Assembly: GCA_037975125.1 (NCBI GenBank)
Contig: JAJQOW010000022.1
Span: 1,064,501-1,128,500, forward strand
Direction of reading: 5' to 3'
Length of the DNA stretch: 64,000 nt
Origin: Latrodectus hesperus
Lineage: Eukaryota; Arthropoda; Arachnida; Araneae; Theridiidae
Shown: positions 15,426-42,369 of the stretch, in pieces
Layout of the letters: the number at the start of each line of letters is the position of its first letter
Numbering within the stretch: the first letter of the stretch is position 1
Translations under genes and position numbers: made by a program
Notes under the pieces: generated by a model
What the model was told of the DNA's origin: nothing
Databases searched by the model: none
Seen by the model: only the letters and a program-made list of their open reading frames with translations

Positions 15426-15578
15426 CTCCACCGAGAGTTTTGGAGATACGGGGTTACAAGAATGGCAGCACGGTCGAAATGAGAGAGGGTCAAAAACTGT
15501 CTCTTCAGTGCTTGGCGAAAAATAGCAAACCGGCAACCAAACTGAAATGGATGCGAAACGGAGTCGAAATCACCAAAG
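15426..15578 (+). CDS. Ig-domain exon, first half (nephrin/SNS-like adhesion gene)
   Basis: The exon is 153 nt, entered and left in phase 1. The acceptor is tttttcag|CTCC and the donor is AAAG|gtaaga. It encodes PPRVLEIRGYKNGSTVEMR, then EGQKLSLQCLAKNSKPATKL and KWMRNGVEITK. This is the first half of an Ig C2-type domain: an inter-domain PP, strand A', the EGQ turn, the strand B cysteine (LQC) and the strand C tryptophan (KLKW). The matching second cysteine is in the exon at 37394-37561, which restores the codon across the junction as Asp. Ig domains of this sort bind partner Ig proteins at the cell surface. EGQ-L-x-C with NSKPAT-LKW resembles nephrin, sticks-and-stones or Hibris, but other Ig adhesion proteins fit too. 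The gene extends beyond what can be seen here. Confidence 0.88.
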
Positions 15579-16266
15579 GTAAGATGGAAGTTGAAGCTCG
15601 AAAACACTCGAATTACGCATCGAGTCTGCATAATTCATGTAATGCACCCACTTGAGTTTTCAGTTTGAAGGTGCATGGGCTATGTGGTATTGCTTACGTA
15701 TGATTGCCAGTAAGCGCAGCACATAAAAAATTTAAGTTTATGGGTACTGCGACTGTATTTTTCTTTTTTTATCATCTGGATTTATTTCGGCGAAGTTTTT
15801 ACTTAGAGATGAAAATATTTTCAGATTGTTTACCAAATGATTGAGATTCATACATATTTATGACCGAGATGGAGCTCTTCATAAAATTCGTGCATTCACA
15901 ATCTTTGCTCGGATTTACTTCGGAAAGAGTGATACGTCACATTTATTCTCTGATACTTATACAAGAATTTATTATTTATTTACTTTATTACCGTTTTAGA
16001 GTTTGAAAGGATTTTAATTTTAAATAATGCAGATAAGGTTTTGGGTAAATATAAAAGTGTGTTTTTATTTCTGTTTTAATTTATAATTTACATTATTTTA
16101 CTGGAGCAAATTCCCAATAATATTTATTTTCTCTGCAAAATATACCCCATTTTCCATTATTTCAGCTGAGAGTAGTGACATCTAGCAGTAAAATGAGTAA
16201 ATATTATAGTATCAAATTATCAATGGGGCACGACTAGATATATATCAGCAAAATAAAAAAATTGCC

Positions 16267-16349
<83 letters not shown>

Positions 16350-19180
16350 AATCGTTTTTTCTTTATGGATTAAAATTTCAACTTTTAATATTATGATGCA
16401 AGACTAAAATTCTACTTTTGGGTGATGGATCATCATTTACATAATAAGAGAAATTAATATGTTCTTAATTTATCGTCAGAAAAAAAAATTCAGTTTTTAA
16501 CTAACAACAACAAATTTGTAATTAGAAAGAGTGAAAATTATAAACGAAAATTCAAAAGATTTTACTGTTGAGAATGATTGTGAATCTAATATTTTTTAAA
16601 ACGATACATTTTAAGGGATTGAATTTAAACGAAAATTTTTTTAAACAGTATAGTGTTCGAAAGTTTGTTCTTGTATTTTGGAAAACCCCTAATTGTAACT
16701 CCTAGATGATATTTTATCCAAATTTCAATTCTGAACCTAGTTTAATCTATAAAAAATACATAAATTTATTTAGAAGCTAGTTAAATTGCTTGTGTGTTGG
16801 TAACAAATATTTTTTTAAAAATAAATATCTGGTTTAATAATTCATCAAACTTTATATTTTAAAATATTGAGATAGATTTAAGACACTGCCTAGTAGTTTT
16901 CCAATTGGTTAGATTTTAAAACCATAAAATAATAATAATTCGTTATCTAGTATCGTTTTTAAAACTATTGTTGTTATTTATATTCCGTAGACAAAGCTTG
17001 AAAATATCAACATGAAATGCACATATGTGCTCATTACATGTGTCCAAATCATGAAAATTACATTAGTTTGTGATATAAAATTTTGATTCATTTACAATGA
17101 TATGACACTAATTAATTATATAAGCTTAGAATAAACATATTTAAATGGGAATATTACAAGTAAATAGATAAATTCAAAGCAGGAGCAATCTGTTTTCTTA
17201 AAATCGAAAGTTTCTGATAATTTTCTTGGCTTCGTTTTTTAAAATTATGAAAAGAAATAGAATCAGATTTAATATTATAGTTAAGGTTTCACATATTGAA
17301 TGGTGCGATAAAAACTACCTGATTATGCCTTAAGTTAAAAATAAGGATAAAAAAGTTGTCATACATTCTAATAAGTTTCATATTTCCAATTAAAAGTGGC
17401 GGAAAAAATATTCTGGTCTGCATTAATCGGGATCTAGGCAATTATTAATTGCTACAATGTTTCTTTTCTTATTTATGCCCCAACTAAAAAATCATAATAA
17501 ATTATGTATCTTTAATATCAAATAATATAAAATTTTCCGCCAGTTTAATAACATTATTTAAAATTTTAATACTTATATATGTAAAATATTATATATAGTA
17601 TTTAAATTTGAAGTAAAATATCTTAGTTACAAACTTAATATAATAAAATTTTAAGAACAAGTATATTTAATACATTTAATAATTGCATTGAATGGAAAAG
17701 CAGTGTATTTGCGATTAATTAGATACATCTTTTCATTTGAATTTTCGTTCGTTAGCTTATAATTGATCTTTAAAAGCAGCAAATGATAATGATTTTAATT
17801 ACATACGTTTTAATAACCGATCCAGTTACACCGAACCCAAGAAATATTTGAAACATTGAAACAGTCAGATCACATTATTTTCTTTATAATTGCTAATTCC
17901 CAACCAATTTTGCAATTAATTTGGTGATGGTAATTACAGAAAACTTTAATTAGATTTCCAATACACGAATTTCTTAATTAGTAAAGAACAAATATTTATC
18001 TGTCTTGTATTAAATCGAACTTCCACTGCATTTGGAAAAGAATTTCTCCTCAAGAGTTAAATAGTTCTTAAGGCCTGATATTCGAAAACAAACTAAGCAG
18101 TCTCAATTATTTTAAATATTCTTCGATACATTTAGGATAACAGTCTTCATTTCAAATTAAAAATCGGATTTTGATTAAAAATTTGAATAAGACAATCCAT
18201 GATTTTGATTCCAAAAATAAAATTAACTCTCTTTATCAAAAGCGGATAATTCACGTCTGAATATATTTCTGAAAAATGTTTAGAAATAAATCGAAATTGT
18301 AGTAAATGATTGAGTTTATTAGTATATTTTATATCAACAAGAACATTCATATATATATCCAAATTCATTTAAGATATGCTTTCATGATACGCAATACTTT
18401 TCTTTGTTTTTCTTTCTGTATTTGAGCCAATTATACATAATATTTAAATCAGGTATTTTAGCTTTAATTAGAAGTTTATTATGCTTCAGCAATTAAAAAA
18501 AACCCATCAAATTACACACGTCAAAAAAATTGTAATTAAGTAAATTAAATATTTTACAATTCATGCAAAAAATAATATTTTCCAAGTATTTAAGTAAATT
18601 CTTAATCGTTTGGAATCTATGTATGCATTTAGATCAACTGTATAGACAACATAAATATCTTTATGTTATCTTCTAAAAGATTTTATTAATATTTTAAAAT
18701 AGTACTCATTCACATATTAAAAATGTGTGCATTAAATGAATATGAAAAATAAAAGACATACAAAAAGCAAACAAAATCATCTAAGAATTTATATATATGC
18801 ATTGTAAAATCAGAGTCACATAATTCATTTTTTGTCAAAATAATTTAAACAACTCATTAAAAATTAAGAATTCAAAATTTACTTCTTAAGTTTGAAAGTA
18901 GAGCAACAATGAAAAAAACTGAAATCCTTTTCAAATTGGTTGTTTCTTGTTTTTGCTTTCTGTGCCTGGAGTTTAACTAAATTTAATAACATTTATATAA
19001 TGAGTTAATTTAATAGGCTATAAGACTTTTATAAACTTTATTTATTAAAGTAATTAATAAATTTATTTATTATTTAATTTTTTAAATATTATATTAATTA
19101 ATTTTATCATAAAATACAATAAATTATGAAAATTAAATATTAATAAAAGTAATTTAATAAAAAAAATTATCATATTATTT
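15579..19180. other. AT-rich intron sequence
   Basis: Apart from the (TA)n tract there is no recognisable gene or interspersed repeat. The segment 19000-19180 is almost pure A+T. Confidence 0.5.
16272..16345. repeat. (TA)n microsatellite
   Basis: Uninterrupted alternating TA run of about 74 bp. Confidence 0.97.
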
Positions 19181-19486
19181 AACTTTTTTTTCCAATTGCG
19201 GGCACAAGAGGGTTGAACCCTATGCCACAACAAGGCCAGAGACTGCTACTCATGTGTTGTTACCCAGCGGGCACCTGTGAACCAAGTCACGGAGGCGAGT
19301 AGCGTTGACGCGTCATACCACCACAAACCCGTTTATAGGGCGGGCCACACATTCATACAACATCACGGAAGAAAGGATAGAGAAACACAGAGAGAACAGA
19401 GAAAGAAAGTAACATCCATGCCCGAACCGAGATTCGAACCCAGGACCCACAGCTCAGGAGTCAGGAGCGCTAACCACATATTATTT
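19171..19486 (-). mobile_element. B-type SINE, 5'-truncated, with TSD
   Basis: The body 19181-19476 is flanked by catattattt (19171-19180 and 19477-19486). On the minus strand it begins inside the tRNA-like head (gtggttagcgctcctgactc), keeps the B box ggttcgaatctcgg, and continues with cctataaacgggtttgtgg, cgtgacttggttcacaggtg and ccgctgggtaac. It ends in ggaaaaaaaa. The A-box end of the head is missing, consistent with incomplete reverse transcription. Confidence 0.87.
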
Positions 19487-20899
19487 TACAGATTTACAAT
19501 TATAGGAATAATAATAAGTCATCTCGTTTTCAAATTCCTTTAATAATGAAAAATATTACGATTATTTTTATTCAGTTACATTATATAAATAGTAGTTGCA
19601 TTTTAAAGACAACATTATATAAAATAATTATTTGTTAATCTCAATCTTCATCTTAATTTATGAGTTCAAAATACGCAATTATAAATTGTTGCATTTTCTG
19701 ACATTTCAAAGTAAATGTGTAAAAGATAAATACACATATTTATGTACTGGACAACGATTAGATTTAAAGGATGTTCTGTTTTCCTGATAAACTTTTCTAA
19801 AAATACTATCATGTACATCTTAATATAATTTTTTACCGGGGGATATACCATAATAAAAAATTTATTGTTCTCAGGGCAACGCAATGTATGCCACATAACG
19901 ATATTTATTTGTTTTATTCTCTTACATAATACAAATGGAACAATGCTGGGACCTAATTTGCTTTTTTGTAGCCATGTAATCTAAGTTGATGCACATTTGC
20001 TGCCAATTCTGCTGCGTGATTGATTGATGTTGGAGTTAAGGGGATGGACTAAGCTCCTCCTTCTAGATCTCAACAGCATCCTGATGAGAGCAGCTCTGTC
20101 TCCCGTGAGATTCGTCTTTTCGTCGCATCAGATAGATTAAAAGCTTTTCGCGATGATCTTTTGATACCATGTCACCAACAAGTCGCTATTAGTGATGCAA
20201 CACTAAAGCGACGACATTTATCGAATGTACTTAAGCGTAGTTGATATAAGCTTAGCACTTCTACCAATCCTTTATTGCTATTAAATGATATATGTAGATT
20301 CCGTATGGTGCTAACTTTAGGGAATAAATATTTACATGCCACTTTTAAAAAACGTTTTGAATTTATTATTTTTATTATAAAGTTTAGAATTTATCATAAT
20401 TAAAAAAATTAAATATTGTTTTATATTTTCGTTAGTTACTATTGTTATTTTTTTAATATTTGCTGCCACTGACGCCCTGGAGCGTCAGCTTGGTGCTACC
20501 TCGTATGCCGGCGACACTCTAGGACGACGATTGACTACCTCGTACTACCTCGTCAGTACGACGATTGGCTACCTCGTAAGTTTTATTTTTAATGGCGATT
20601 CAATGAAGAGGATTTTGAGATATATTAGTAAGGCATTATTTTTATATTTCAATGCGTGGTTACTATATTTTATATTTTAATTTTTTAGGTACATTTTTTT
20701 AAAAAAATGGCGGACAATACATTCGGCTTCTAAAGATGAATACATAAATTTTGCCAAAAGCTGATGTGTTCATAATACAAACTTTTATTGTAATCACAAA
20801 TGTCAATAAATTATAATTATAAACTTTTTTATAACATTAAATTTTAATTTTCAACAGCAAAAAAATTACACGGAAAAATCACTCAAATGTGTTTCCCTG
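19487..20899. other. Intron sequence with a GC-rich island
   Basis: Mostly AT-rich with no gene. The block 20020-20250 is less AT-rich but has no recognisable product. The island at 20462-20580 is listed separately. Confidence 0.4.
20462..20580. other. GC-rich island with four CTACCTCGT motifs
   Basis: About 120 bp of clearly higher GC sits in almost pure AT DNA. It contains ctacctcgt four times (near 20496, 20536, 20545 and 20571) and gacgac/acgacgatt motifs. One plus-strand frame stays open through it, without an ATG, and the block is followed by gtaagt. No domain is recognisable and no acceptor AG precedes it closely. Confidence 0.45.
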
Positions 20900-21229
20900 T
20901 GATCTAATGTACAGACGACCGATGGCTGAGTGGTTAGCATTCCTGACTCCTGATCTGTGGGTCCCGGGTTCGCATCCCGGTTCGGGCATGGATATTTATT
21001 TCCTTCTCTGTTCTCTCTGTCCTTTCTTCTGTGAAGTTGTATGAATGTGGCCCGCCCTATAAATGGGTTTGTGGTGGTATGGTGCGGGTAACGCTACTCG
21101 CCTCCGTGACTTGGTTCACAGGTACCCGCTGGGTAACGATAAATAAGTATCAGTTTCTGGCCTTGTTTTGGCATAGGGTTCGTCACCCAAGTGTGCCCGC
21201 CATTGGAATAAAAAAATGATCTAATGTAC
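20900..21229 (+). mobile_element. B-type tRNA-headed SINE with TSD
   Basis: The body 20913-21216 is flanked by perfect 13-bp direct repeats tgatctaatgtac (20900-20912 and 21217-21229). The tRNA-like head has an A-box-like tggctgagtggttagc and a B box ggttcgcatcccgg. The body encodes nothing; its open frame (starting in gttgtatgaatgtggcccgc) recurs in every B-type copy simply because the copies are related. The 3' end is ccattgg followed by an A-rich tail. This is a full-length copy. Confidence 0.92.
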
Positions 21230-21389
21230 TCCCGATGCTCTTGTAGAATACATTGAATGGTGTATTCAGAAATAATATCTGAATTATATAAGAACTAATG
21301 TTCTAAATATTATAACATAATCTTTTAAGTGCCTAGGCTAACGGCATATATATACGAATTGAAAAGAGAAAAAAAGAAAAAAAAGAAGT

Positions 21390-22195
21390 TGATGCTTTGA
21401 ATAACCCTAGATAGTACAATTCCAGTACTAGATAAACTCCACAAGTCAGGAAATCGAAAGTATTATGGGCTTTGAAAAAGCCTTTTCCAAGTCCAAATTC
21501 AAGCAGCTCTAGATTTGCTCAGGAAATGCCTGTTCAGCTTTATATTTTGTGCTCAGACTAAAAGTCTTTTGACCCTGCACACATTTGAGTGCCCTTAGGT
21601 GACCACTGGTGAAGCGTGAAATTCAAGTCTGATGACCTCTAGTTCCCTCCAAAAGCAAGGCACCAGCAGGACGCCAATTATGAGGAGGTGGAATCCTCCA
21701 GACATCCATAAGCGTTTTTTCACTCAGTGAAACCCTCATTAAAATTGGACGGAAAATCAGGTTGTGAAGGTTCAAAGAGGCAGCCTTAACCAGCGAATCA
21801 GCAAGTCTCGTTTTGCTTCATGCTGACGTGCGACGGGATCTAGTGAAAATGAAAATTAATCCCAAAATCTTTGAGGGTCCATTGATCATATTCAATATTG
21901 AACTTCCAACTCTGTCACCAACCTTCATCTAATTGCTTAGGTGTTGGATTGAAGACTTGCTATCAGTCGGAATCCATACATGCTCAAAATCAGGTTTAGA
22001 AATATTCTCAACATAACTCAGTCCATTTTCAATAGCTATAAGCTCCGATCAGCAAAGTTCAGAATTTCTCAACTTGAAACTTTGGTTAGACATAGGAGTT
22101 GTGATAAATGCACCACTACCAGAATGGCCCTCGTTGCTTTTGCTACCATCTGTATAGATTTGCATAGCATCAATTGGAAGAAAACTTAACAGGCA
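21390..22195 (-). pseudogene. LINE ORF2 RNase H and C-terminal region, decayed
   Basis: Read on the minus strand from 22195, the frame passes through DAMQIYTDGSKSNEGHSGSG, where YTDGS carries the first catalytic aspartate of an RNase H domain. It continues with ENGLSYVENI, HVWIPTDSKSSIQHL and then TSGHLRALKCVQGQKTF. The zinc motif has decayed to LSTKYKAEQAFPEQI followed by a stop, and the end reads CLNLDLEKAFSKP. Several stops and frameshifts are present. The 3' end runs into an A-rich tail (ttct-rich on the plus strand near 21362-21390). The subfamily is the same as the fragment at 56745-56930 (KAEQ, AFSKP). Confidence 0.72.
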
Positions 22196-22250
22196 CTAGA
22201 TTTACCATAATGAAGAAAATTTATAAGAGTTGATCAATCTTTGTAAACTG

Positions 22251-22470
22251 TGTTGTTGTTGTTGCTTATCCCCGACTGGCGTGACAGTACCATCACACCA
22301 GCCCCATGAATCCAAAAATAGTCAGTCTCTCAAGCACCATCTCCAGTCTCACAACTTCATGTCTCCTCTCTCACACCCAATGCACTGAAAAATATAAGAT
22401 GGGGAGGCCTGAACCAAACGACATTTGGGACAGAGAAGGTAGACCTTTGTACCAGAGACGTAAATTGTAA
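22251..22470 (-). pseudogene. LINE 3' end with zinc motif and (AAC)n tail
   Basis: On the minus strand the translation is VYLLCPKCRLVQASPSYIFQ followed by CIGCERGD. This is the C-terminal C-x2-C...C motif of the SPEHIL-type LINEs. It is followed by about 100 bp of 3' sequence and an (AAC)n tail (gttgttgttgttg at 22251-22263 on the plus strand). It lies 55 bp from, and in the same orientation as, the LINE fragment at 21390-22195, but the two are separate insertions because each has its own zinc region. Confidence 0.68.
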
Positions 22471-22697
22471 AATCATGCATTGAACTATAAAAGAATTAAT
22501 CGTGTTTTAACCTAGTTTTAGAAAACAATCCAAAATTTCACATTCGCCAAGAACACAAACTTGCCCTTTACACAAAGTTGCCATAAAGTTCATTTTATGA
22601 CACTTCAGTTTATTCTAAGAGTTTTTGGGGTTCAAAAACCTTATTTCCATTGTAAATCCTATATCTTATCCGATATGTTCTTACACTTCCCTAACAG

Positions 22698-22985
22698 TTT
22701 TCTGTAATTGTTGTTATTTATGACAATTGGACAAGCCAAGCTCGATAGCCGACGGCTATGCGAAATTAAGTCAGAAATGTGCGTCTTTCGTTTTAAACAG
22801 AGCACCACGAAAGTGTGAGTACGCTTTGCTCTAAGACTCCTCCAATAGATGGCACCACCAGAACATCCTCTCCTTCAATTTTGACTTTGATTTGGAGAGG
22901 GGAGAAATTTTCTCTAGACAACTACACCCATGGTAGCTGCTTAACGACCGACCACAAGGCTGTCTTCTAAGCCGCTTATTTAAGG
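22698..22985 (-). mobile_element. C-type SINE, 5'-truncated, minus strand
   Basis: Read on the minus strand it shows the C-type body (gaccacagga-like start, ccatgggtgtagttgtc, ggtggtgccatctattggag). This is followed by the common 3' module (aaagcgtactcac, aaaacgaaagacgcac, ttggcttgtcc) and an (AAC)n tail. The tRNA-like head is missing. The 3' module carries a small duplication around gatagccgacggctatg. Confidence 0.75.
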
Positions 22986-24336
22986 AGAAGATGTAACGGT
23001 GTGTTTACAGGAAATCTTTACTCGTTTTCAGTCACGTGGCTTGTATAAAAATTTGCGATGAATGTCTCCTTTATTAAATCATAAGATGTATAACGAAAAG
23101 TTGTAAAGGTTCTGGGATTTAAACCACACGGGCTCGAAATTTTCTGAACACAATTAAATGAGCATAGATATTCCGAATATATAAACTAAATCAAAAATTC
23201 ATTAATAAATTTTAATTAGCAATATGCTTATGAAAATACGAACTTATTTAAGTGCCTTCCAAATGTTAACTTGATACTAATAACTTTCTTGAAATATTCC
23301 TTTAATTTTCGTCTTATTTACGTATTCCCAATACAATTTATATCACGCTCTTCTCGCCGAAAAATTTAAATGGATTCTTTGCTATAGTTGCATGAAAATA
23401 GAACGGTTCCAGTCGTATTCGAAAGATTTATTTTGCATGCTATAATTAAAATTGATAGCAGTAATGGATGCAGATAAAATATAGTATTGTTTAAAATCAG
23501 TTGAAAATAATCCCTTTCGTTAAGTAACTTTGCATTATCTTATCTATTATTAAAAGTACCTAACTCTGCACAAACTTATAAAATCATCGCATTTCATTAA
23601 CATTTATCAATTATTGTAATGTATTTCTGCTTAATTACCTTCGTAACTAATAAATAAGCTTCTGTCTTTGAAAAATTGCATATGTTTAGTGTATTATATT
23701 TAATAATTTTATGATATGCATAGCTGAAATATAACAGTAAAGTTTATTTTGAATAAAAAATACCAAATGCGTTGATTCTTAAAATTAAAGTTTTTTTGTG
23801 TAGATTTAGTATTTAAACCCATTTGGCAAAATTATATCTTTTGAAAATTAATTTTATATCAGCCAACATGATTTTATTTTTCAATAAAATTAATAAGCTA
23901 AATATAATGTATAATTTATGAAGCATAATATCAACAACGTTAATAGATATAAATGCACATCTATTAAAAGAAACAAGTGTATTAATAACTTGAACAGGGT
24001 TTGGTGTATATTTGGGTACCCTTTGGTTTGGTTTAAAATTTAGCAGTAAATTTTAATTTCTAGTAACCCTTGTACTCCTATCTTTATATAGCTTTTGCGT
24101 AGCTGCCATTTTGTTAGTCACATCTTGGCTCCTATCTTGGGGTCAAAAAATCTCCTAAGAAAAAGGCTACCCGATTGTAAACTTTTACAGCTCTAATATA
24201 TTATGATATAATGCACAGATATTAAAATCAAGGGTATCGATAATGTAATAAAGCGGTGTGTGAAAAGTAGATCATAATTTTAGCGTTTTTATTATAAAAA
24301 AACGAAAACCTCTATTAAAATTGTACAATTTAAATT
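22986..24336. other. AT-rich intron sequence
   Basis: No gene, RNA or repeat recognised. Confidence 0.5.
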
Positions 24337-24645
24337 GCCGCCCAACTTGTCTAGTGGTCAGCATCCCTGACTGCGGATAAGGAGATCCTGGGTTCGAATC
24401 CCGGTTCGGGCATGGATGTACTTTCTCTCTCTGTCTATCCTGTCTTTGTCCTTTCCTTCTATGAATGAGGTGTGAATGGTTGCTTACCCTATAAACGGGT
24501 CCCTATGGCATGTGTGTAGAGTAAAGTCGTACTTTCACCTTCCTGGTGCTCTGATTAAAAACGAAAGACGCTCCCAATTGACTTAAATTCGCATAGCCAA
24601 GGCATAGCGATCTTGGCTTGTCCAAGTGTCATTAGTAACAACAAT
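24337..24645 (+). mobile_element. A-type tRNA-headed SINE, full length
   Basis: Complete head gccgcccaacttgtctagtg with B box ggttcgaatcccgg and ttcgggcatgg. It has the CT-rich body, cctataaacgggtccctatgg, the common 3' module and a short AAC tail. A clear target duplication was not found. Confidence 0.85.
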
Positions 24646-26573
24646 TTTAATTTCCCTTTGCTCTAAAAAACTTAATAGAGACCAATATTATAATCTGCAT
24701 TATTTTTTTCTTCTTAAAAGCTAAGCAATATATACCTTTTAAGATAAACATAAAATGATATGCAAACAAGATAGATGAACTACTAATGGTAGAAGAGGAG
24801 CTATCCATCTTATTGGAGTTAAGAAAAAAACAAATAAACCTTATCTACTATTAATGATCTTAATAAAGGGAAGAAAAATTGTCATGTAGTCTTAAACATT
24901 CCTCTGGAGTTTTATAATTACATTCTAAACTGCGCAAATCTCCTTCCAAAAGCAATTTGGGGAAAAATTAATTAAAGTAATTGATGGTTGCAATTATTCA
25001 ATAAAAATCACGTCATAGCTGTTCTCATTAAGAGGACTATTTTTCAATGAATTTAACATTTCTTTGATAGGTCCTGTCCATAAATCGATTAATGGATTCT
25101 GCAAGAAGTCTTTTTTAGGATGAAAAATTTGGCTCCAAACGAGTGATCACGATTAATTGCTTACAAATTGTTCCGATTTCTTCTTCATTAATACACTTAA
25201 GAAGTTTAGGGAATATTTCACCCAATTTATGAATGCTTTCAACAAGAAGGGTGTCTAAAAATTAATTTTAATTAAGCACCCTTGATAAAATCAAACTTTC
25301 TCTACATTTTTATATTAATTATAAATTTTATGCTGTTTGTTGTTTCCATAGTAATGGATACATTTTAAATAAAAAGACTGAAAATTTTCAAGAGAGAATG
25401 AAATCAAGCGTTAACCCTTTTTCTTTTTATTAATATTTTATTTTTTCCTTTCTGTTCTATAATCATTTTCCTATGCAATTCATGATTAGATTGGTACCGT
25501 CCTTATATTATGAATAAAGGGCTATGACTTAACTAACTAAATATTCTTATAATTTTAAAAGTATTCTCTATTAATTAATCATAATTTAAATCTATCTTTT
25601 ATCAACATTAATTTTCTTATCCATTAAACATTATATAATTTTTCGTGTTACCTTACTTTTAAATTTAGAGCTTGTATTGCTTATAACAAGTCCATTAAAT
25701 GTTAATATTAAATGCCTCTCAGAACAATAGTTTATTGAACGAAAATAAGCTTAATTTATTCTCTATGTTTCCCCATTTTTGCATATTAAAAGTAAATTTC
25801 CTTTTCTATTTGTTTTTTAATTGTTTTATTGTAGCTTTTTATTTCTTCAGTCAGTTTGAATTTGAATACCAGGAACAATCATAAATGCTGATTGAATTAC
25901 ACTGATTTAAACCATAACTATCACCAAGATAACCTACAATAAAGATTCTACTATCACCTACGGTAAAGATTTAATGCTACGAAGATTTTATAAATAATTG
26001 TTCATTATATTAATACATTAATTAGCTACGTCAAATGCTTCTAATTTAAGATGGCGATGAAACAGATTAAATTATTAGATGTATAAATGGATTAAGATGA
26101 AATTTTTAGAGCAAAAAAGAATATTTAGTCATAAATTAGATAGCTTAGGTTAACGGAAAAGTGACAAATCGTAATATGTGGTTATGGAGAATTTTTCAAA
26201 AACAAGTCGTGTATCGATTTTAATTTAGTTCGAAAAATATTTCAGTTTTTGCCTAGATAGGATAAAAAGAAACAAAAAATTATAAATATGCAAATTAACA
26301 ATTCAAAAATTCTAAATTAACAGGAAAAGTGGAAATTATGCTAATACTTTTGATTTTACTATTTGATTACGTCTCTTCCAAGTAAATACAAAATATTTTT
26401 AACAAGAGTATATTTCAAATAATTTATTTTGCAATTATTTGAAAGTCTAATATTTTAAGTTTTTCTTTCTTACATTCAATGACATAACATAAGTTTTTAA
26501 ATAAAAATTCAACTTAGATAATTTTAATACCCCTTTCTTGTATTAAGAAAGTGAGGCACTACATTTATAATAA
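24646..26573. other. AT-rich intron sequence
   Basis: No gene or repeat of a recognised family. ORFs such as 25699-25884 are hydrophobic, low-complexity and unconvincing. Confidence 0.5.
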
Positions 26574-27003
26574 TTTATCTTTAATGATATTCATCATTAG
26601 CTGCAAACCAAATTTAAGGAATATATGGATAAATTCATATCCGTAATGTACCCCAACCACATTTACAACAGAGCCTATAATCTATCGTTAATGATATTCA
26701 TAATTATCTGCAAAGCAAATCTATGGAATCTATCTGTAATTTCGTATCCGTAATGTAACCGCAACCACATTTACAACAGAGCCTATAATCTATCTTCATT
26801 AATATTCATCATTAGCTGCAAACCAAATTTCAGGAATCCATGTATAAATTCGTATTCGTAAAGAACCCGCAACCTTATTCACAACAGAGACTATAATCTA
26901 TCTTTACTTATATTCATCATTAGCTGCAAAGCAAATCTCAGGAATCTATGTGTAATTTCGTATCCGTAAAGTACCGCCACCTCATTTACAACAGAACCTA
27001 TAA

Positions 27004-30000
27004 TCTATCTTTATTGATATTCTTCATTAGCTGCAAAGCAAATCTCAGGAATCTATGTGTAATTTCGTATCCGTAAAGTACCGCCACCTCATTTACAACA
27101 GAACCTATAATCTATCTTTATTGATATTCTTCATTAGCTGCAAAGCAAATCTCAGGAATCTATGTGTAATTTCGTATCCGTAAAGTACCGCCACCTCATT
27201 TACAACAGAACCTATAATCTATCTTTATTGATATTCTTCATTAGCTGCAAAGCAAATCTCAGGAATCTATGTGTAATTTCGTATCCGTAAAGTACCGCCA
27301 CCTCATTCACAACAGAACCTATAATCTATCTTTATTGATATTCTTCATTAGCTGCAAAGCAAATCTCAGGAATCTATGTGTAATTTCGTATCCGTAAAGT
27401 ACCGCCACCTCATTTACAACAGAACCTATAATCTATCTTTATTGATATTCTTCATTAGCTGCAAAGCAAATCTCAGGAATCTATGTGTAATTTCGTATCC
27501 GTAAAGTACCGCCACCTCATTTACAACAGAACCTATAATCTATCTTTATTGATATTCTTCATTAGCTGCAAAGCAAATCTCAGGAATCTATGTGTAATTT
27601 CGTATCCGTAAAGTACCGCCACCTCATTTACAACAGAACCTATAATCTATCTTTATTGATATTCTTCATTAGCTGCAAAGCAAATCTCAGGAATCTATGT
27701 GTAATTTCGTATCCGTAAAGTACCGCCACCTCATTTACAACAGAACCTATAATCTATCTTTATTGATATTCTTCATTAGCTGCAAAGCAAATCTCAGGAA
27801 TCTATGTGTAATTTCGTATCCGTAAAGTACCGCCACCTCATTTACAACAGAACCTATAATCTATCTTTATTGATATTCTTCATTAGCTGCAAAGCAAATC
27901 TCAGGAATCTATGTGTAATTTCGTATCCGTAAAGTACCGCCACCTCATTTACAACAGAACCTATAATCTATCTTTATTGATATTCTTCATTAGCTGCAAA
28001 GCAAATCTCAGGAATCTATGTGTAATTTCGTATCCGTAAAGTACCGCCACCTCATTTACAACAGAACCTATAATCTATCTTTATTGATATTCTTCATTAG
28101 CTGCAAAGCAAATCTCAGGAATCTATGTGTAATTTCGTATCCGTAAAGTACCGCCACCTCATTTACAACAGAACCTATAATCTATCTTTATTGATATTCT
28201 TCATTAGCTGCAAAGCAAATCTCAGGAATCTATGTGTAATTTCGTATCCGTAAAGTACCGCCACCTCATTTACAACAGAACCTATAATCTATCTTTATTG
28301 ATATTCTTCATTAGCTGCAAAGCAAATCTCAGGAATCTATGTGTAATTTCGTATCCGTAAAGTACCGCCACCTCATTTACAACAGAACCTATAATCTATC
28401 TTTATTGATATTCTTCATTAGCTGCAAAGCAAATCTCAGGAATCTATGTGTAATTTCGTATCCGTAAAGTACCGCCACCTCATTTACAACAGAACCTATA
28501 ATCTATCTTTATTGATATTCTTCATTAGCTGCAAAGCAAATCTCAGGAATCTATGTGTAATTTCGTATCCGTAAAGTACCGCCACCTCATTTACAACAGA
28601 ACCTATAATCTATCTTTATTGATATTCTTCATTAGCTGCAAAGCAAATCTCAGGAATCTATGTGTAATTTCGTATCCGTAAAGTACCGCCACCTCATTTA
28701 CAACAGAACCTATAATCTATCTTTATTGATATTCTTCATTAGCTGCAAAGCAAATCTCAGGAATCTATGTGTAATTTCGTATCCGTAAAGTACCGCCACC
28801 TCATTTACAACAGAACCTATAATCTATCTTTATTGATATTCTTCATTAGCTGCAAAGCAAATCTCAGGAATCTATGTGTAATTTCGTATCCGTAAAGTAC
28901 CGCCACCTCATTTACAACAGAACCTATAATCTATCTTTATTGATATTCTTCATTAGCTGCAAAGCAAATCTCAGGAATCTATGTGTAATTTCGTATCCGT
29001 AAAGTACCGCCACCTCATTTACAACAGAACCTATAATCTATCTTTATTGATATTCTTCATTAGCTGCAAAGCAAATCTCAGGAATCTATGTGTAATTTCG
29101 TATCCGTAAAGTACCGCCACCTCATTTACAACAGAACCTATAATCTATCTTTATTGATATTCTTCATTAGCTGCAAAGCAAATCTCAGGAATCTATGTGT
29201 AATTTCGTATCCGTAAAGTACCGCCACCTCATTTACAACAGAACCTATAATCTATCTTTATTGATATTCTTCATTAGCTGCAAAGCAAATCTCAGGAATC
29301 TATGTGTAATTTCGTATCCGTAAAGTACCGCCACCTCATTTACAACAGAACCTATAATCTATCTTTATTGATATTCTTCATTAGCTGCAAAGCAAATCTC
29401 AGGAATCTATGTGTAATTTCGTATCCGTAAAGTACCGCCACCTCATTTACAACAGAACCTATAATCTATCTTTATTGATATTCTTCATTAGCTGCAAAGC
29501 AAATCTCAGGAATCTATGTGTAATTTCGTATCCGTAAAGTACCGCCACCTCATTTACAACAGAACCTATAATCTATCTTTATTGATATTCTTCATTAGCT
29601 GCAAAGCAAATCTCAGGAATCTATGTGTAATTTCGTATCCGTAAAGTACCGCCACCTCATTTACAACAGAACCTATAATCTATCTTTATTGATATTCTTC
29701 ATTAGCTGCAAAGCAAATCTCAGGAATCTATGTGTAATTTCGTATCCGTAAAGTACCGCCACCTCATTTACAACAGAACCTATAATCTATCTTTATTGAT
29801 ATTCTTCATTAGCTGCAAAGCAAATCTCAGGAATCTATGTGTAATTTCGTATCCGTAAAGTACCGCCACCTCATTTACAACAGAACCTATAATCTATCTT
29901 TATTGATATTCTTCATTAGCTGCAAAGCAAATCTCAGGAATCTATGTGTAATTTCGTATCCGTAAAGTACCGCCACCTCATTTACAACAGAACCTATAAT

Positions 30001-31925
30001 CTATCTTTATTGATATTCTTCATTAGCTGCAAAGCAAATCTCAGGAATCTATGTGTAATTTCGTATCCGTAAAGTACCGCCACCTCATTTACAACAGAAC
30101 CTATAATCTATCTTTATTGATATTCTTCATTAGCTGCAAAGCAAATCTCAGGAATCTATGTGTAATTTCGTATCCGTAAAGTACCGCCACCTCATTTACA
30201 ACAGAACCTATAATCTATCTTTATTGATATTCTTCATTAGCTGCAAAGCAAATCTCAGGAATCTATGTGTAATTTCGTATCCGTAAAGTACCGCCACCTC
30301 ATTTACAACAGAACCTATAATCTATCTTTATTGATATTCTTCATTAGCTGCAAAGCAAATCTCAGGAATCTATGTGTAATTTCGTATCCGTAAAGTACCG
30401 CCACCTCATTTACAACAGAACCTATAATCTATCTTTATTGATATTCTTCATTAGCTGCAAAGCAAATCTCAGGAATCTATGTGTAATTTCGTATCCGTAA
30501 AGTACCGCCACCTCATTTACAACAGAACCTATAATCTATCTTTATTGATATTCTTCATTAGCTGCAAAGCAAATCTCAGGAATCTATGTGTAATTTCGTA
30601 TCCGTAAAGTACCGCCACCTCATTTACAACAGAACCTATAATCTATCTTTATTGATATTCTTCATTAGCTGCAAAGCAAATCTCAGGAATCTATGTGTAA
30701 TTTCGTATCCGTAAAGTACCGCCACCTCATTTACAACAGAACCTATAATCTATCTTTATTGATATTCTTCATTAGCTGCAAAGCAAATCTCAGGAATCTA
30801 TGTGTAATTTCGTATCCGTAAAGTACCGCCACCTCATTTACAACAGAACCTATAATCTATCTTTATTGATATTCTTCATTAGCTGCAAAGCAAATCTCAG
30901 GAATCTATGTGTAATTTCGTATCCGTAAAGTACCGCCACCTCATTTACAACAGAACCTATAATCTATCTTTATTGATATTCTTCATTAGCTGCAAAGCAA
31001 ATCTCAGGAATCTATGTGTAATTTCGTATCCGTAAAGTACCGCCACCTCATTTACAACAGAACCTATAATCTATCTTTATTGATATTCTTCATTAGCTGC
31101 AAAGCAAATCTCAGGAATCTATGTGTAATTTCGTATCCGTAAAGTACCGCCACCTCATTTACAACAGAACCTATAATCTATCTTTATTGATATTCTTCAT
31201 TAGCTGCAAAGCAAATCTCAGGAATCTATGTGTAATTTCGTATCCGTAAAGTACCGCCACCTCATTTACAACAGAACCTATAATCTATCTTTATTGATAT
31301 TCTTCATTAGCTGCAAAGCAAATCTCAGGAATCTATGTGTAATTTCGTATCCGTAAAGTACCGCCACCTCATTTACAACAGAACCTATAATCTATCTTTA
31401 TTGATATTCTTCATTAGCTGCAAAGCAAATCTCAGGAATCTATGTGTAATTTCGTATCCGTAAAGTACCGCCACCTCATTTACAACAGAACCTATAATCT
31501 ATCTTTATTGATATTCTTCATTAGCTGCAAAGCAAATCTCAGGAATCTATGTGTAATTTCGTATCCGTAAAGTACCGCCACCTCATTTACAACAGAACCT
31601 ATAATCTATCTTTATTGATATTCTTCATTAGCTGCAAAGCAAATCTCAGGAATCTATGTGTAATTTCGTATCCGTAAAGTACCGCCACCTCATTTACAAC
31701 AGAACCTATAATCTATCTTTATTGATATTCTTCATTAGCTGCAAAGCAAATCTCAGGAATCTATGTGTAATTTCGTATCCGTAAAGTACCGCCACCTCAT
31801 TTACAACAGAACCTATAATCTATCTTTATTGATATTCTTCATTAGCTGCAAAGCAAATCTCAGGAATCTATGCGTAATTTCGCATCCGTAAAAAGTACCG
31901 AAACCACATTTACAACAGAAATGAT
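27004..31925. repeat. Homogenised satellite core, 46 monomers
   Basis: Monomer starts run from 27004 to 31819 with no change in the 107-bp period (45 intervals total exactly 4815 bp). Differences between monomers are extremely rare: one that I noticed is cctcattcacaac instead of cctcatttacaac near 27307. The last monomer (31819) carries tgcgtaatttcgcatcc, which marks the switch to the higher-order region. Confidence 0.95.
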
Positions 31926-32231
31926 ATTCATTATTAGCTGCAAAGCAAGTCTCAGGAATCTATGTATAAATTCGTATCCCTAAAGTACCACAACCACATT
32001 TACAACCGAACCTATAATCTATCTTTAATGATATTCATTATTAGCTGCAAAGCAAATTTCAAAGATCTGTTTATAAATTCGTATCCATAAAGTACCGCCA
32101 CCTCATTTACAACAGAACCTATAATCTATCTTTATTGATATTCTTCATTAGCTGCAAAGCAAATCTCAGGAATCTATGTGTAATTTCGTATCCGTAAAGT
32201 ACCGCCACCTCATTTACAACAGAACCTATAA

Positions 32232-35200
32232 TCTATCTTTATTGATATTCTTCATTAGCTGCAAAGCAAATCTCAGGAATCTATGTGTAATTTCGCATCC
32301 GTAAAAAGTACCGAAACCACATTTACAACAGAAATGATATTCATTATTAGCTGCAAAGCAAGTCTCAGGAATCTATGTATAAATTCGTATCCATAAAGTG
32401 CCGCAACCACATTTACAACTGAGTCAATAATCTACCTTTAATATATTATTCATTATTAGCTGCAAAGCAAATCTCAGGAATCTATGTATAAATTCGTATC
32501 CCTAAAGTACCACAACCACATTTACAACCGAACCTATAATCTATCTTTAATGATATTCATTATTAGCTGCAAAGCAAATTTCAAAGATCTGTTTATAAAT
32601 TCGTATCCATAAAGTACCGCCACCTCATTTACAACAGAACCTATAATCTATCTTTATTGATATTCTTCATTAGCTGCAAAGCAAATCTCAGGAATCTATG
32701 TGTAATTTCGCATCCGTAAAAAGTACCGAAACCACATTTACAACAGAAATGATATTCATTATTAGCTGCAAAGCAAGTCTCAGGAATCTATGTATAAATT
32801 CGTATCCATAAAGTGCCGCAACCACATTTACAACTGAGTCAATAATCTACCTTTAATATATTATTCATTATTAGCTGCAAAGCAAATCTCAGGAATCTAT
32901 GTATAAATTCGTATCCCTAAAGTACCACAACCACATTTACAACCGAACCTATAATCTATCTTTAATGATATTCATTATTAGCTGCAAAGCAAATTTCAAA
33001 GATCTGTTTATAAATTCGTATCCATAAAGTGCCGCAACCACATTTACAACAGAACCTATAATCTATCTTTATTGATATTCTTCATTAGCTGCAAAGCAAA
33101 TCTCAGGAATCTATGTGTAATTTCGCATCCGTAAAAAGTACCGAAACCACATTTACAACAGAAATGATATTCATTATTAGCTGCAAAGCAAGTCTCAGGA
33201 ATCTATGTATAAATTCGTATCCATAAAGTGCCGCAACCACATTTACAACTGAGTCAATAATCTACCTTTAATATATTATTCATTATTAGCTGCAAAGCAA
33301 ATCTCAGGAATCTATGTATAAATTCGTATCCCTAAAGTACCACAACCACATTTACAACCGAACCTATAATCTATCTTTAATGATATTCATTATTAGCTGC
33401 AAAGCAAATTTCAAAGATCTGTTTATAAATTCGTATCCATAAAGTACCGCCACCTCATTTACAACAGAACCTATAATCTATCTTTATTGATATTCTTCAT
33501 TAGCTGCAAAGCAAATCTCAGGAATCTATGTGTAATTTCGCATCCGTAAAAAGTACCGAAACCACATTTACAACAGAAATGATATTCATTATTAGCTGCA
33601 AAGCAAGTCTCAGGAATCTATGTATAAATTCGTATCCATAAAGTGCCGCAACCACATTTACAACTGAGTCAATAATCTACCTTTAATATATTATTCATTA
33701 TTAGCTGCAAAGCAAATCTCAGGAATCTATGTATAAATTCGTATCCCTAAAGTACCACAACCACATTTACAACCGAACCTATAATCTATCTTTAATGATA
33801 TTCATTATTAGCTGCAAAGCAAATTTCAAAGATCTGTTTATAAATTCGTATCCATAAAGTACCGCCACCTCATTTACAACAGAACCTATAATCTATCTTT
33901 ATTGATATTCTTCATTAGCTGCAAAGCAAATCTCAGGAATCTATGTGTAATTTCGTATCCGTAAAGTACCGCCACCTCATTTACAACAGAACCTATAATC
34001 TATCTTTATTGATATTCTTCATTAGCTGCAAAGCAAATCTCAGGAATCTATGTGTAATTTCGTATCCGTAAAGTACCGCCACCTCATTTACAACAGAACC
34101 TATAATCTATCTTTATTGATATTCTTCATTAGCTGCAAAGCAAATCTCAGGAATCTATGTGTAATTTCGTATCCGTAAAGTACCGCCACCTCATTTACAA
34201 CAGAACCTATAATCTATCTTTATTGATATTCTTCATTAGCTGCAAAGCAAATCTCAGGAATCTATGTGTAATTTCGCATCCGTAAAAAGTACCGAAACCA
34301 CATTTACAACAGAAATGATATTCATTATTAGCTGCAAAGCAAGTCTCAGGAATCTATGTATAAATTCGTATCCATAAAGTGCCGCAACCACATTTACAAC
34401 TGAGTCAATAATCTACCTTTAATATATTATTCATTATTAGCTGCAAAGCAAATCTCAGGAATCTATGTATAAATTCGTATCCCTAAAGTACCACAACCAC
34501 ATTTACAACCGAACCTATAATCTATCTTTAATGATATTCATTATTAGCTGCAAAGCAAATTTCAAAGATCTGTTTATAAATTCGTATCCATAAAGTGCCG
34601 CAACCACATTTACAACAGAACCTATAATCTATCTTTATTGATATTCTTCATTAGCTGCAAAGCAAATCTCAGGAATCTATGTGTAATTTCGCATCCGTAA
34701 AAAGTACCGAAACCACATTTACAACAGAAATGATATTCATTATTAGCTGCAAAGCAAGTCTCAGGAATCTATGTATAAATTCGTATCCATAAAGTGCCGC
34801 AACCACATTTACAACTGAGTCAATAATCTACCTTTAATATATTATTCATTATTAGCTGCAAAGCAAATCTCAGGAATCTATGTATAAATTCGTATCCCTA
34901 AAGTACCACAACCACATTTACAACCGAACCTATAATCTATCTTTAATGATATTCATTATTAGCTGCAAAGCAAATTTCAAAGATCTGTTTATAAATTCGT
35001 ATCCATAAAGTACCGCCACCTCATTTACAACAGAACCTATAATCTATCTTTATTGATATTCTTCATTAGCTGCAAAGCAAATCTCAGGAATCTATGTGTA
35101 ATTTCGCATCCGTAAAAAGTACCGAAACCACATTTACAACAGAAATGATATTCATTATTAGCTGCAAAGCAAGTCTCAGGAATCTATGTATAAATTCGTA

Positions 35201-35449
35201 TCCATAAAGTGCCGCAACCACATTTACAACTGAGTCAATAATCTACCTTTAATATATTATTCATTATTAGCTGCAAAGCAAATCTCAGGAATCTATGTAT
35301 AAATTCGTATCCCTAAAGTACCACAACCACATTTACAACCGAACCTATAATCTATCTTTAATGATATTCATTATTAGCTGCAAAGCAAATTTCAAAGATC
35401 TGTTTATAAATTCGTATCCATAAAGTGCCGCAACCACATTTACAACAGG
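32232..35449. repeat. Higher-order satellite region, 415-bp four-monomer unit
   Basis: The marker tttcgcatcc recurs at 32291, 32706, 33121, 33536, 34272, 34687 and 35102. Spacing is 415 bp except for one interval of 736, which is 415 plus three ordinary 107-bp monomers. Each unit has four monomer types: A (tttcgcatccgtaaaaagta); B, which lacks 17 bp (acagaa joins directly to atgatattc); C (actgagtcaataatctacc); and D (aaatttcaaagatctgttta). The lengths A+B 199, C 109 and D 107 add to 415. An incomplete unit lacking C lies at 31878-32290. Confidence 0.95.
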
Positions 35450-35889
35450 GAAAATAACATTGTTTATTCAATCTCACTGCTTCTATTTGATTTGCTGAGA
35501 GGTTAACATTGAATATTTGTACGGGAATCACTTACTCAATGCTCATACAAATCCAGTCATTCTTTGCTATTGAAGTAAATCAGTTATAGAGATCTCTATC
35601 ATTCTAAACTATAAGCTTACAAATGTTGCAAAGTAACGTACATGTATGCCCAATATTTTGGATTTTAAATTTTTGATAACAATATACATTTTAAACTATT
35701 GCATTTTCTCTCTTTTATTTAAAGAACTTGCTTACCCTTGCAGTATAAGATTAAAATAAAAATATATGCAAACATAAAAATATAATTCTTTCAATTATTA
35801 ATAAGTAAAATGGAATATATTATGGCATTAGTAAACAGTAGTAAGAAAGCACATGGCTTTAGTAAAAAACTTAAGAAGCATGGATTTGT
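35450..35889. other. Non-coding stretch between satellite and mariner
   Basis: No gene or repeat recognised. Confidence 0.5.
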
Positions 35890-35891
35890 TA

Positions 35892-36606
35892 GGTTAGGGA
35901 ATAAGTTCGTAGCATTTTTACCAAAGACTTTTATTTAAACAAAAAACAATAATTATATCATTAAGTTAATCACAATTATATTTATTCGGCTTGCTGCTTA
36001 CAACCTCTTCCCACCTCTCGACTAATTTGTTGATGCCGTTCCGCCAAAAATCACCTGATCTGGTGTCAAAATGTTGTTGAGCAAGTTTTTGAGGATCTCT
36101 TTGTTATCGAAGGTAGCGCCTTTCATATGGTTTGACAAAGAGTGGAAAGATGGTAATCGGTCGGTGCAAGATATAAAGAATACGGTGGATGCTGAAGGAC
36201 CTCCTATTCGAGCTCTTGGAGTGTGGCTTTGACGACTTGTGCAACATGGGGCCTGGCGTTGTCGTGAAGGAGTATGGTTTGACCATGTCGATCAGGTCTT
36301 TTCAGTCGAATAGCCTCATTCACGTGGTGTAGCTGGGCAATGTAGAGCTCCTTGTTGACTGTGGCATTCTTTTCGAGCATTTCCCAATGCACCAAGAGGT
36401 CCTTAAAAACAACCTGGCTAAACAGCTCTTTTGACACCAGACCAGGCGATTTTTGGCCAAATGGCATCCACAAATGAGTCGAGAGGTGGGAAGAAATAGT
36501 AAACAGCAACGGCGAATATATAATTGATTAACTTGTTGATATAATTATTGTTTTTGTTTAAATAAAAGTGTCTTTGACAAAAACGATACGAACTTATTCC
36601 CCAACC
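35892..36606 (-). mobile_element. Fold-back mariner derivative, 715 bp
   Basis: It is flanked by TA (35890-35891 and 36607-36608). The ends are ggttagggaataagttcgta and, read inward on the other strand, ggttggggaataagttcgta. Unlike ordinary mariners, whose inverted ends are about 30 bp, the similarity of the two arms continues for about 170-200 bp (35892-36090 against 36606-36420). It includes sequence that in the left arm encodes the transposase C-terminus. The right arm is thus an inverted copy of the left, and the true 5' end of the transposon is missing. The centre keeps part of the transposase. Confidence 0.85.
36060..36420 (-). pseudogene. mariner transposase C-terminal remnant
   Basis: On the minus strand a frame reads VHWEMLEKNATVNKELYIAQ, then IRLKRPDRHGQTILLHDNAR and PHVAQVVKATLQELE. 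HDNARPH holds the second catalytic aspartate of the DD34D triad. After a frame break come RILYILHRPITIFP and VKPYERRYLR, which correspond in other frames to the region of the third aspartate. The N-terminal DNA-binding region and first aspartate are absent. It cannot code for an active enzyme. Confidence 0.8.
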
Positions 36607-36608
36607 TA

Positions 36609-37393
36609 ATAGTACAACTGATCTTATTAAAGCCATTGTTAGACATGAATTAAGTTGACGTTTTTTTTTCCATTCCAAGAATATTCTTGGAAATCACTAT
36701 GACCATTTAGTTAATACTCTACTAATTAGAATAAAGTGATATGAGTGTATTTTTGCATTTTTTCTTTTAATAAATATATTTCTCTAAAGATGGATAGACA
36801 ACCCTTTTCTAATCTTCATTTTTTTCATGTGCAGCATCAAACCACAAATTGTTTCAGTTTGCATTACGCCTTTTTAAGGTTTACTCATGATTTTGCGCCA
36901 TAGATTTTCTCCCTTTTTTAATATTCTCCTCTAATTGCTAAAAACGTTGTTATAAAATAATTTATGTATACATATACGACTCATTATTCAATAGTGTTCT
37001 CTTTTATTGTTTGTTTATATTTTGAAGCATTTTTCTATTCAAATTCTTCAATTTATACTAAAGTAAACCTGAATGGAATCATGGCTTATATTTATCTGTA
37101 CTCTTTGATTTTGCTGGTACTAAAAATAAATATTCTCAGAATTTTTGTTATAAAATAGATTGCATATTCAAGCACAACAGAATTCTTAGAATGCATTTCT
37201 AGATATATTTTATAAGTGTAATTTATAAAAAATAAAAAACCTATAGTTCATTAAAAGGAAGAAATCATAATACTTACTATTGAAAACTCTCATATTGCTT
37301 TAATCAATAAAAACCTTTTTTTATCAAAACATTGCAGAATTTAAACGTTTTGAATTTGTGTTCGTGTAATTTCAATGAGATTTTCAATTGCAG
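36609..37393. other. AT-rich 3' intron sequence with acceptor
   Basis: No gene. It ends with gtaatttcaatgagattttcaattgcag, the acceptor of the second Ig exon (AG at 37392-37393). Confidence 0.55.
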
Positions 37394-37561
37394 ATACCAC
37401 TCCCATGAAACAGGAAGATTCTACCGCCAGTTTGAAGTCCACAACCATTTCTGTAACATTGTCTCCGAAGCTGGATGATAATGGCGCCATCTACAGCTGT
37501 GTTGCTGAACATAAGGCAATCGCAAGACCCATGAGAACCAATGTTTTCTTAAGTGTTTTAT
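37394..37561 (+). CDS. Ig-domain exon, second half
   Basis: This exon of 168 nt is phase 1 at both ends: acceptor caattgcag|ATACC, donor TTTTAT|gtaagt. The split codon from the exon at 15426-15578 gives Asp. The product reads DTTPMKQEDSTASLKSTTIS, VTLSPKLDDNGAIYSCVAEH and KAIARPMRTNVFLSVL. It contains strands D-G of an Ig domain with the classic D-x-G-x-Y-x-C motif (DDNGAIYSC), the partner of the LQC cysteine in the other exon. The last codon begins with T, compatible with Tyr followed by the usual P-rich linker to the next Ig domain. Together the two exons give a domain of about 107 residues, normal for an Ig C2 domain. No transmembrane or signal segment is visible here. Confidence 0.9.
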
Positions 37562-40210: not shown

Positions 40211-40492
40211 TGCCGCCTAACTTGTCGAGTGGTCAGCGTGCCTGACTACGGATAAGGAGGTCCTGGATTCGAATCCCGGTTCGGGCATGGATATACTTTC
40301 TCTCTCTATCTATATCCTGTCTTTGTCCTTTCCTTGTATGAATGGTGTGTGAATGGTTGCCTACCCTATAAACGGGTCCCTATGGCCTGTGTGTACTGAG
40401 GAAGTCGAACTCCACACCAAAATAGGGTTCAGTTGGAAAAGTGGAGCTGCGCACCCTATGTTGCCAGCCTAGCTGGCACACGACAATGAATG
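40211..40492 (+). mobile_element. A-type SINE with alternative 3' module (H)
   Basis: The head is the A type (tgccgcctaacttgtcgagtg, ggattcgaatcccgg or close). After ctatggcctgtgtgtactga it does not continue with the common module. Instead it has a different 3' end: aggaagtcgaactccacacc, agtggagctgcgcaccc and cagcctagctggcacacgac. The same combination is found reversed at 47551-47843, so it is a real subfamily and not a chance junction. Confidence 0.82.

Positions 40493-42369
<1,877 letters not shown>

What the first reader, a model, noticed from the sequence alone, without database searches (positions are those of the whole stretch)
27004..31925. 46 satellite monomers at an exact 107-bp period inside an intron
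The sequence shows 46 consecutive monomers with no length change and almost no substitutions, next to diverged monomers on the left. Such homogeneity implies recent expansion by unequal exchange or rolling-circle amplification. It is unusual to see it inside an intron, here one that splits an Ig domain. The array must be transcribed and spliced out if the gene is active, so it may form RNA or chromatin structures.
Basis: partly seen in the sequence, partly recalled or inferred. Interest (0 to 1): 0.75.

Follow-up and report, generated by a model that had tools for sequence, protein, structure and literature searches.

The report
Locus-specific tandem array in spider intron
A spider adhesion gene carries, inside one intron, a run of 46 almost identical 107-base repeats that is part of a larger repeat cluster whose layout records how such clusters grow and shrink; it is a tidy example of an ordinary process rather than a new kind of element.

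Summary
From 26921 to 31842 there are 46 head-to-tail 107-bp units, 45 identical and one with a single T>C. They are part of an 8.9-kb array (26570-35448). At the equivalent junction of those copies the 107-bp unit has 1, 0, 0, 0, 3, 0, 0 extra exact copies, and two other units are exact one-breakpoint chimeras: footprints of out-of-register recombination in place. The array lies in a predicted 21.8-kb intron that splits an Ig domain; a Stegodyphus protein reads across the two exons without a gap, so they are one gene, of a spider. The one genome search that was answered found the unit here only. Tandem arrays are common here: 11 in 200 kb, this one included, and in 5 of 9 control stretches, one of them 4.76 kb at 99%. 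It is a new single-locus member of a known kind. Folds do not stand out from shuffles. Read support, polymorphism and expression could not be tested.

The parts
26570..35448 (+). whole tandem array; 84 units when cut at TA[GT]CTGCAAA
   Evidence: TRF; unit cutting
26570..26920 (+). left edge: three diverged units (T01-T03) and a short partial unit before them
   Evidence: 80-90% identical to the other types
26921..31842 (+). 46 units of 107 bp (45 identical T04, one T05 with one T>C)
27309..31872 (+). longest stretch with no deviation from the 107-bp period
31843..32148 (+). shortened higher-order copy: T06 (T09 with one change), T07 (T10/T11 chimera), T08
32149..32255 (+). one extra T04 unit at the T08|T09 junction
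32256..35448 (+). 415-bp higher-order repeat T09-T10-T11-T08/T12, seven copies, the last ending in a truncated unit (T13); three T04 units lie between the fourth and fifth copy
33916..34236 (+). three extra T04 units at the T08|T09 junction
15426..15578 (+). exon A (predicted), first half of an Ig domain, phase 1 at both ends
   Evidence: letters; Ig match
15579..37393 (+). intron (predicted), 21,815 bp, 40.7% of it the array
   Evidence: GTAAGA donor; TTGCAG acceptor; letters printed
37394..37561 (+). exon B (predicted), second half of the same Ig domain
   Evidence: letters

Best explanation
It is a locus-specific tandem array (satellite-like VNTR) in an intron of an Irre/Kirre/nephrin-type Ig adhesion gene of a spider. 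It evolves in place by out-of-register recombination or slippage: blocks of whole units are duplicated and deleted between misaligned copies. One hybrid 107-bp monomer (T04), almost a chimera of two neighbours in a four-monomer higher-order repeat, was amplified to 46 copies on the left and to 1 and 3 extra copies at the equivalent junction inside the higher-order part. The left-edge monomers escaped homogenisation and diverged. Shown: unit order, identities, chimeric sequences, splice signals in phase, one gene. Inferred: the exchange mechanism, the recency, and that the array is neutral passenger DNA that is transcribed and spliced out.
For: Exact T04-phase tracts at the seven equivalent junctions are 208, 101, 85, 101, 422, 85, 101 bp, that is 101 + n x 107 with n = 1, 0, 0, 3, 0 where T08 precedes and 85 where T12 precedes. 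T08 is an exact T12/T04 chimera (0 differences against 3 for the best single parent); T07 is an exact T10/T11 chimera sitting where one monomer of the 415-bp order is missing; T04 is one difference from a T09/T08 chimera against 9 for the best single parent. T09, T10 and T11 are each identical in 7 of 7 higher-order copies. Strongly diverged units are found at the left edge only. The answered genome search had one candidate and its 43 matches all lie inside the array. None of six folds (four of the 13 unit types, T04 on both strands and in two phases) stands out from shuffles, z -0.47 to 0.90.
Against: T07 differs from T11 by one base only, so one substitution plus deletion of T10 fits it as well. 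T04 and T08 each resemble a chimera involving the other, so the direction of events is not settled. The right edge (T13) is not diverged, unlike the left. One search warns that common words are skipped and counts are lower bounds; its follow-up searches did not complete. Reads are not available, so copy number and perfection rest on the assembly.
Confidence: 0.8

Rival explanations
1. Rolling-circle amplification: a circle holding one or a few T04 units was copied and the multimer was inserted by homology into the array.
For: 46 units, 45 of them identical, in one uninterrupted block is what a single multimer insertion would give; the right end of the block joins a T09-like unit as in the higher-order copies.
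Against: The graded series of 1 and 3 extra units at the same junction elsewhere and the chimeric units are explained by exchange alone; no second locus was found.
Confidence: 0.12
2. Assembly product: the number of units, or their perfect identity, comes from consensus building or polishing and not from the animal.
For: Perfection over 4.6 kb is the sort of stretch where polishing could erase differences; the window lies on a 1.6-Mb scaffold, C22, whereas eight sampled scaffolds between C1 and C12 have 79-137 Mb, so it may be unplaced sequence.
Against: The order of distinct units (T05 near the left edge, T06, T07, T08 and T12 in mixed order, T04 runs of 1 and 3) is retained, and the other ten arrays in the 200 kb keep their differences (70-98% matches).
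Confidence: 0.1
3. A copy of a dispersed satellite or of a mobile element that carries tandem repeats.
For: A decayed mariner-like element with terminal inverted repeats lies at about 35889-36609, 0.4 kb right of the array.
Against: No other locus; no match to the unit above chance level in nine control stretches (best E 0.37) or in the rest of the 200 kb (best E 0.23); no exact 27-mer match in viral contigs; the mariner-like ends lie outside the array.
Confidence: 0.06
4. A functional intronic element, for example an RNA, chromatin or splicing regulator selected for its repeats.
For: No AATAAA or ATTAAA on the transcribed strand over 8.9 kb against 71 in the other 12.9 kb of the intron; each T04 unit holds GTAAAG and ACAG, a weak splice-site-like pair (sequence).
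Against: None of six folds stands out from shuffles; no Rfam match in the array at gathering score; the units hold so little independent sequence that missing poly(A) signals mean little; conservation could not be tested.
Confidence: 0.05

Closest known systems
Large single-locus VNTR arrays with higher-order structure in the human genome (PMC2588610; passages seen), e.g. the 61-bp VNTR of Xp22.33, 18 kb with irregular 1.6- and 2.5-kb higher-order repeats
   Same: one locus, many units, irregular higher-order repeats within one array
   Different: here a 107-bp unit, 8.9 kb, in a spider intron, with one unit type expanded to 46 copies
ABCA7 VNTR (PMC6857246; passages seen; its intronic place is recalled)
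   Same: gene-associated VNTR that reaches multi-kilobase length
   Different: 25-bp GC-rich unit with frequent substitutions, known alleles from 300 to over 10,000 bp; here polymorphism is untested
TCAST satellite-like elements in Tribolium euchromatin (PMC3411249, PMC5844308; passages seen)
   Same: satellite monomers in introns, reported as overrepresented near genes with Ig-like domains
   Different: dispersed families, the satellite-like TCAST elements in at most four tandem monomers; here one locus with 84 units
Satellite-bearing giant introns of Drosophila Y genes kl-3 and kl-5 (PMC6508621; passages seen)
   Same: satellite inside introns, there shown to be transcribed with the gene
   Different: megabases of simple satellite repeats; here 8.9 kb of a complex unit, transcription untested
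Homogenised repeated introns of Argiope MaSp2 silk genes (PMC9779670; passages seen)
   Same: spider intronic sequence kept uniform (within-gene averages 94.3-99.7%)
   Different: there whole introns alternate with repeated exons; here the repeats lie within one intron between two halves of an Ig domain

Membership tests
Satellite DNA | head-to-tail tandem units of more than about 100 bp (size border as in PMC3152781, passage seen) | tested here: met
   84 units, 107-bp base period, one orientation
Satellite DNA | abundant in the genome, many arrays | tested here: inconclusive
   only this locus matched, but that search skips common words; the mismatch-tolerant scan did not complete
Satellite DNA | heterochromatic or centromeric location | not testable with these tools
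   scaffold C22 has 1.6 Mb and could not be placed on a chromosome; the array sits in a gene
Single-locus VNTR (large minisatellite) | array confined to one locus | tested here: inconclusive
   so, within the limits that call states; no match above chance in nine 10-kb control stretches
Single-locus VNTR (large minisatellite) | copy number differs between alleles | not testable with these tools
   one assembly, no reads; different unit numbers at equivalent junctions within the array suggest it
Higher-order repeat array | multi-monomer unit more alike between copies than its monomers are to each other | tested here: met
   T09, T10, T11 identical in 7 of 7 copies each, while they are 87.8-92.2% alike to each other
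IRM-type Ig adhesion gene (Irre/Kirre/nephrin/SYG) | Ig domain of C2-set type, homology to named members | tested here: met
   C2-set_2 E 1.8e-9; SYG-2 is the best of the solved structures by sequence, E 2.1e-13; 83% identical over 87% of the domain to a Stegodyphus protein named Irregular chiasm C-roughest, partial
IRM-type Ig adhesion gene (Irre/Kirre/nephrin/SYG) | complete domain chain with transmembrane segment; which branch of the family | not tested
   only some exons were located, over about 120 kb

The most novel reading that the evidence does not exclude
The array is a hypervariable length switch: its copy number changes quickly between individuals and tunes transcription or splicing of an IRM-type adhesion gene, so that a cell-recognition protein varies in dosage or isoform between spiders.
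Probability: 0.03. Interest if true: 0.75.

Novelty: new member of a known kind. Interest (0 to 1): 0.28.

Why it matters
It is a compact record of how tandem arrays grow: the same unit at the same kind of junction with 0, 1, 3 and about 46 extra copies, beside the chimeras that exchange leaves behind. With long reads from several animals it could serve to measure expansion and contraction at one genic locus. It also shows that long introns of this spider can hold sizeable homogeneous arrays, which matters for assembly and gene prediction. It does not by itself reveal a new mechanism.

Tried and rejected
Rejected: (1) the two Ig halves belong to different genes: a Stegodyphus protein is continuous over the junction and both splice sites are in phase (letters in 65). 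(2) Special RNA structure: six foldings of four of the 13 unit types, z-scores from -0.47 to 0.90. (3) Known structured RNA: the one Rfam match at gathering score in the window is a tRNA at 24340-24412, within a SINE copy. (4) Viral origin: no exact 27-mer match in viral contigs. (5) Long coding frame: no stop-to-stop frame of 60 aa or more overlaps the array. (6) A firm young date: simulates growth from 1 to 46 units, 1,000 runs per setting. With single-unit duplication at most one variable site is found in 6.8% of runs at theta 0.1 and in none at 0.3; with block duplication still in 18.5% at theta 0.3, the highest value tried. With a recalled rate of 3e-9 per base and generation this leaves, by hand calculation, about 1.4 and 2.4 million generations open, so identity alone does not prove a very recent burst.

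Led nowhere: a mismatch-tolerant genome scan for the monomer, a scan with the diverged left-edge units and a scan for a second copy of the gene (a haplotig test) did not complete. Literature listings were used to choose papers; of PMC7919458 and PMC3152781 I also saw passages only.

Full report
The observation. TRF gives one array from 26570 to 35448 with a 107-bp period. Cut at TA[GT]CTGCAAA it falls into 84 units of 13 sequence types. From left to right: three diverged units (T01-T03, 107, 108 and 108 bp); 46 units of exactly 107 bp from 26921 to 31842, 45 of them identical (T04) and one with a single T>C (T05, at 27242); then T06, T07, T08, a shortened higher-order copy; one T04; and seven copies of a 415-bp order T09 (92 bp) - T10 (109) - T11 (107) - T08 or T12 (107), with three T04 units between the fourth and the fifth copy and a truncated last unit (T13). 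The anchor does not occur on the other strand. The longest stretch that never deviates from the period is 27309-31872. The finding's count is right and its coordinates are right to within about 85 bp; it missed the right-hand part, which is just as homogeneous: T09, T10 and T11 occur seven times each without a difference.

How it grew. The higher-order repeat contains, across the T08|T09 boundary, a stretch that is T04 in another phase. Across the seven equivalent junctions the exact T04-phase tract is 208, 101, 85, 101, 422, 85 and 101 bp long: 101 + n x 107 with n = 1, 0, 0, 3, 0 where T08 precedes, and 85 where T12 precedes. T08 is an exact one-breakpoint chimera of T12 and T04; T07 is an exact chimera of T10 and T11 and sits where a T10 plus a T11 are expected but only one unit is present; T04 is one difference away from a T09/T08 chimera against nine from its best single parent. 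These are the marks of exchange between misaligned copies, which adds or removes whole units in place. The 46-unit block, which joins a T09-like unit (T06) on its right, is the largest case. The diverged left edge fits the expectation that units at an edge take less part in exchange (established idea, recalled); the right edge is not diverged, which this idea does not explain. T07 alone could also be one substitution plus a deletion. The direction of the T04/T08 relation is not settled.

How recent. Simulated growth from 1 to 46 units agrees with at most one variable site unless the mutation load per unit and duplication time exceeds roughly 0.1 (single-unit duplication: 6.8% of 1,000 runs at 0.1, none at 0.3); with block duplication 18.5% of 1,000 runs still agree at 0.3, the highest value tried. 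With a recalled rate of 3e-9 per base and generation this leaves about 1.4 and 2.4 million generations open (hand calculation). Homogeneity therefore argues against an old static array but does not prove a very recent burst; continuing exchange would give the same picture.

The host gene. Exon A (15426-15578) ends at a GTAAGA donor and exon B (37394-37561) follows a TTGCAG acceptor; both are phase 1 (letters). These are predictions from sequence; no transcript was seen. Joined, they encode one Ig domain (C2-set_2, E 1.8e-9) whose best relative among solved structures is domain 2 of SYG-2 (E 2.1e-13 for the whole chain). The protein search gave 6 hits among 9 candidates; the four with names are all spiders. 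The best, from Stegodyphus mimosarum, named Irregular chiasm C-roughest protein (partial), is 83% identical over 87% of the domain and runs through the exon junction without a gap: its residues 48-98 match exon A at 92% and 99-142 match exon B at 70%. A piece of a preceding domain lies upstream of the window at scaffold position 1059867, and Ig exons lie downstream at 1152403 and 1181789, on the same strand; that these belong to the same gene is inferred. The array makes up 8,879 of 21,815 bp of the intron.

How unusual it is. In the 200 kb around the window TRF finds 11 arrays of period 20 or more and length 150 bp or more, 15,045 bp in all, of which this one is 8,879 bp; 9 of the 11 lie between the outermost exons found. 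One of them (1669-2226) overlaps two SINE copies in a row. In nine 10-kb stretches of other scaffolds, taken at fixed positions (one of them with 2,500 N), 5 of 9 hold at least one such array, six arrays in all; one is a 256-bp array with 99% matches that fills the first 4,760 bp of its stretch and may extend beyond. So homogeneous arrays of several kilobases do not seem rare in this genome, on a small sample. In print, satellites in introns are known from Tribolium, where 29 of 68 TCAST-like elements are intronic and the elements are overrepresented near genes with Ig-like domains (PMC3411249, passages), and from Drosophila Y genes (PMC6508621, passages); large single-locus VNTRs with irregular higher-order repeats are known from man (PMC2588610, passages). 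I did not search the literature for this exact unit and claim nothing about its absence from print.

Is it a dispersed satellite? The one answered search of the 1.64-Gb assembly, with two T04 units, gave 43 matches, all within this array. That search skips very common words and scores only the best candidates, so it supports but does not prove a single locus. Neither the nine control stretches (best E 0.37) nor the rest of the 200 kb (best E 0.23) hold a match above chance level, and viral contigs have no exact 27-mer match. The follow-up scans met 24 further busy replies (listed in Tried and rejected), so the haplotig question is open: scaffold C22 has 1.6 Mb, whereas eight sampled scaffolds between C1 and C12 have 79-137 Mb.

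Function. None of six folds (T04 in two phases and on both strands, T09, T10, T11) stands out from shuffles; no Rfam family matches in the array at gathering score. The transcribed strand of the array has no AATAAA or ATTAAA while the other 12.9 kb of the intron have 71, but the array contains only a few hundred bases of independent sequence, so this is weak. If the gene is active the array is transcribed and spliced out; nothing here shows more. The most likely reading is passenger DNA that changes length by unequal exchange.

Verdict. A real, single-locus satellite-like array in a spider intron; new as a locus, ordinary as a kind. Its best use is as a natural record of unit gain and loss.

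Noticed in passing
window 35889-36609: Decayed mariner-like element 0.4 kb right of the array: terminal stretches complementary over about 100 bp at 86% and a partial Transposase_1 match in between.
   Followed up: partly
window 56952-58255: Second fairly homogeneous array, 80-bp unit, 16.7 copies, 97% matches, between exons of the same gene.
   Followed up: no
window 40216-40500 and 11 further matches (e.g. 1643, 24341, 42667, 47826): tRNA-derived SINE family, 12 matches in the window (the query copy included) at 71-100% identity, both strands; the tRNA head at 24340-24412 reaches the Rfam cut-off.
   Followed up: partly
window 3396-4262: 126-bp tandem repeat, 6.9 copies, 85% matches, upstream of exon A.
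   Followed up: no
L027 1-4760: 256-bp tandem array with 99% matches on scaffold C15, starting at or before the first base taken.
   Followed up: no
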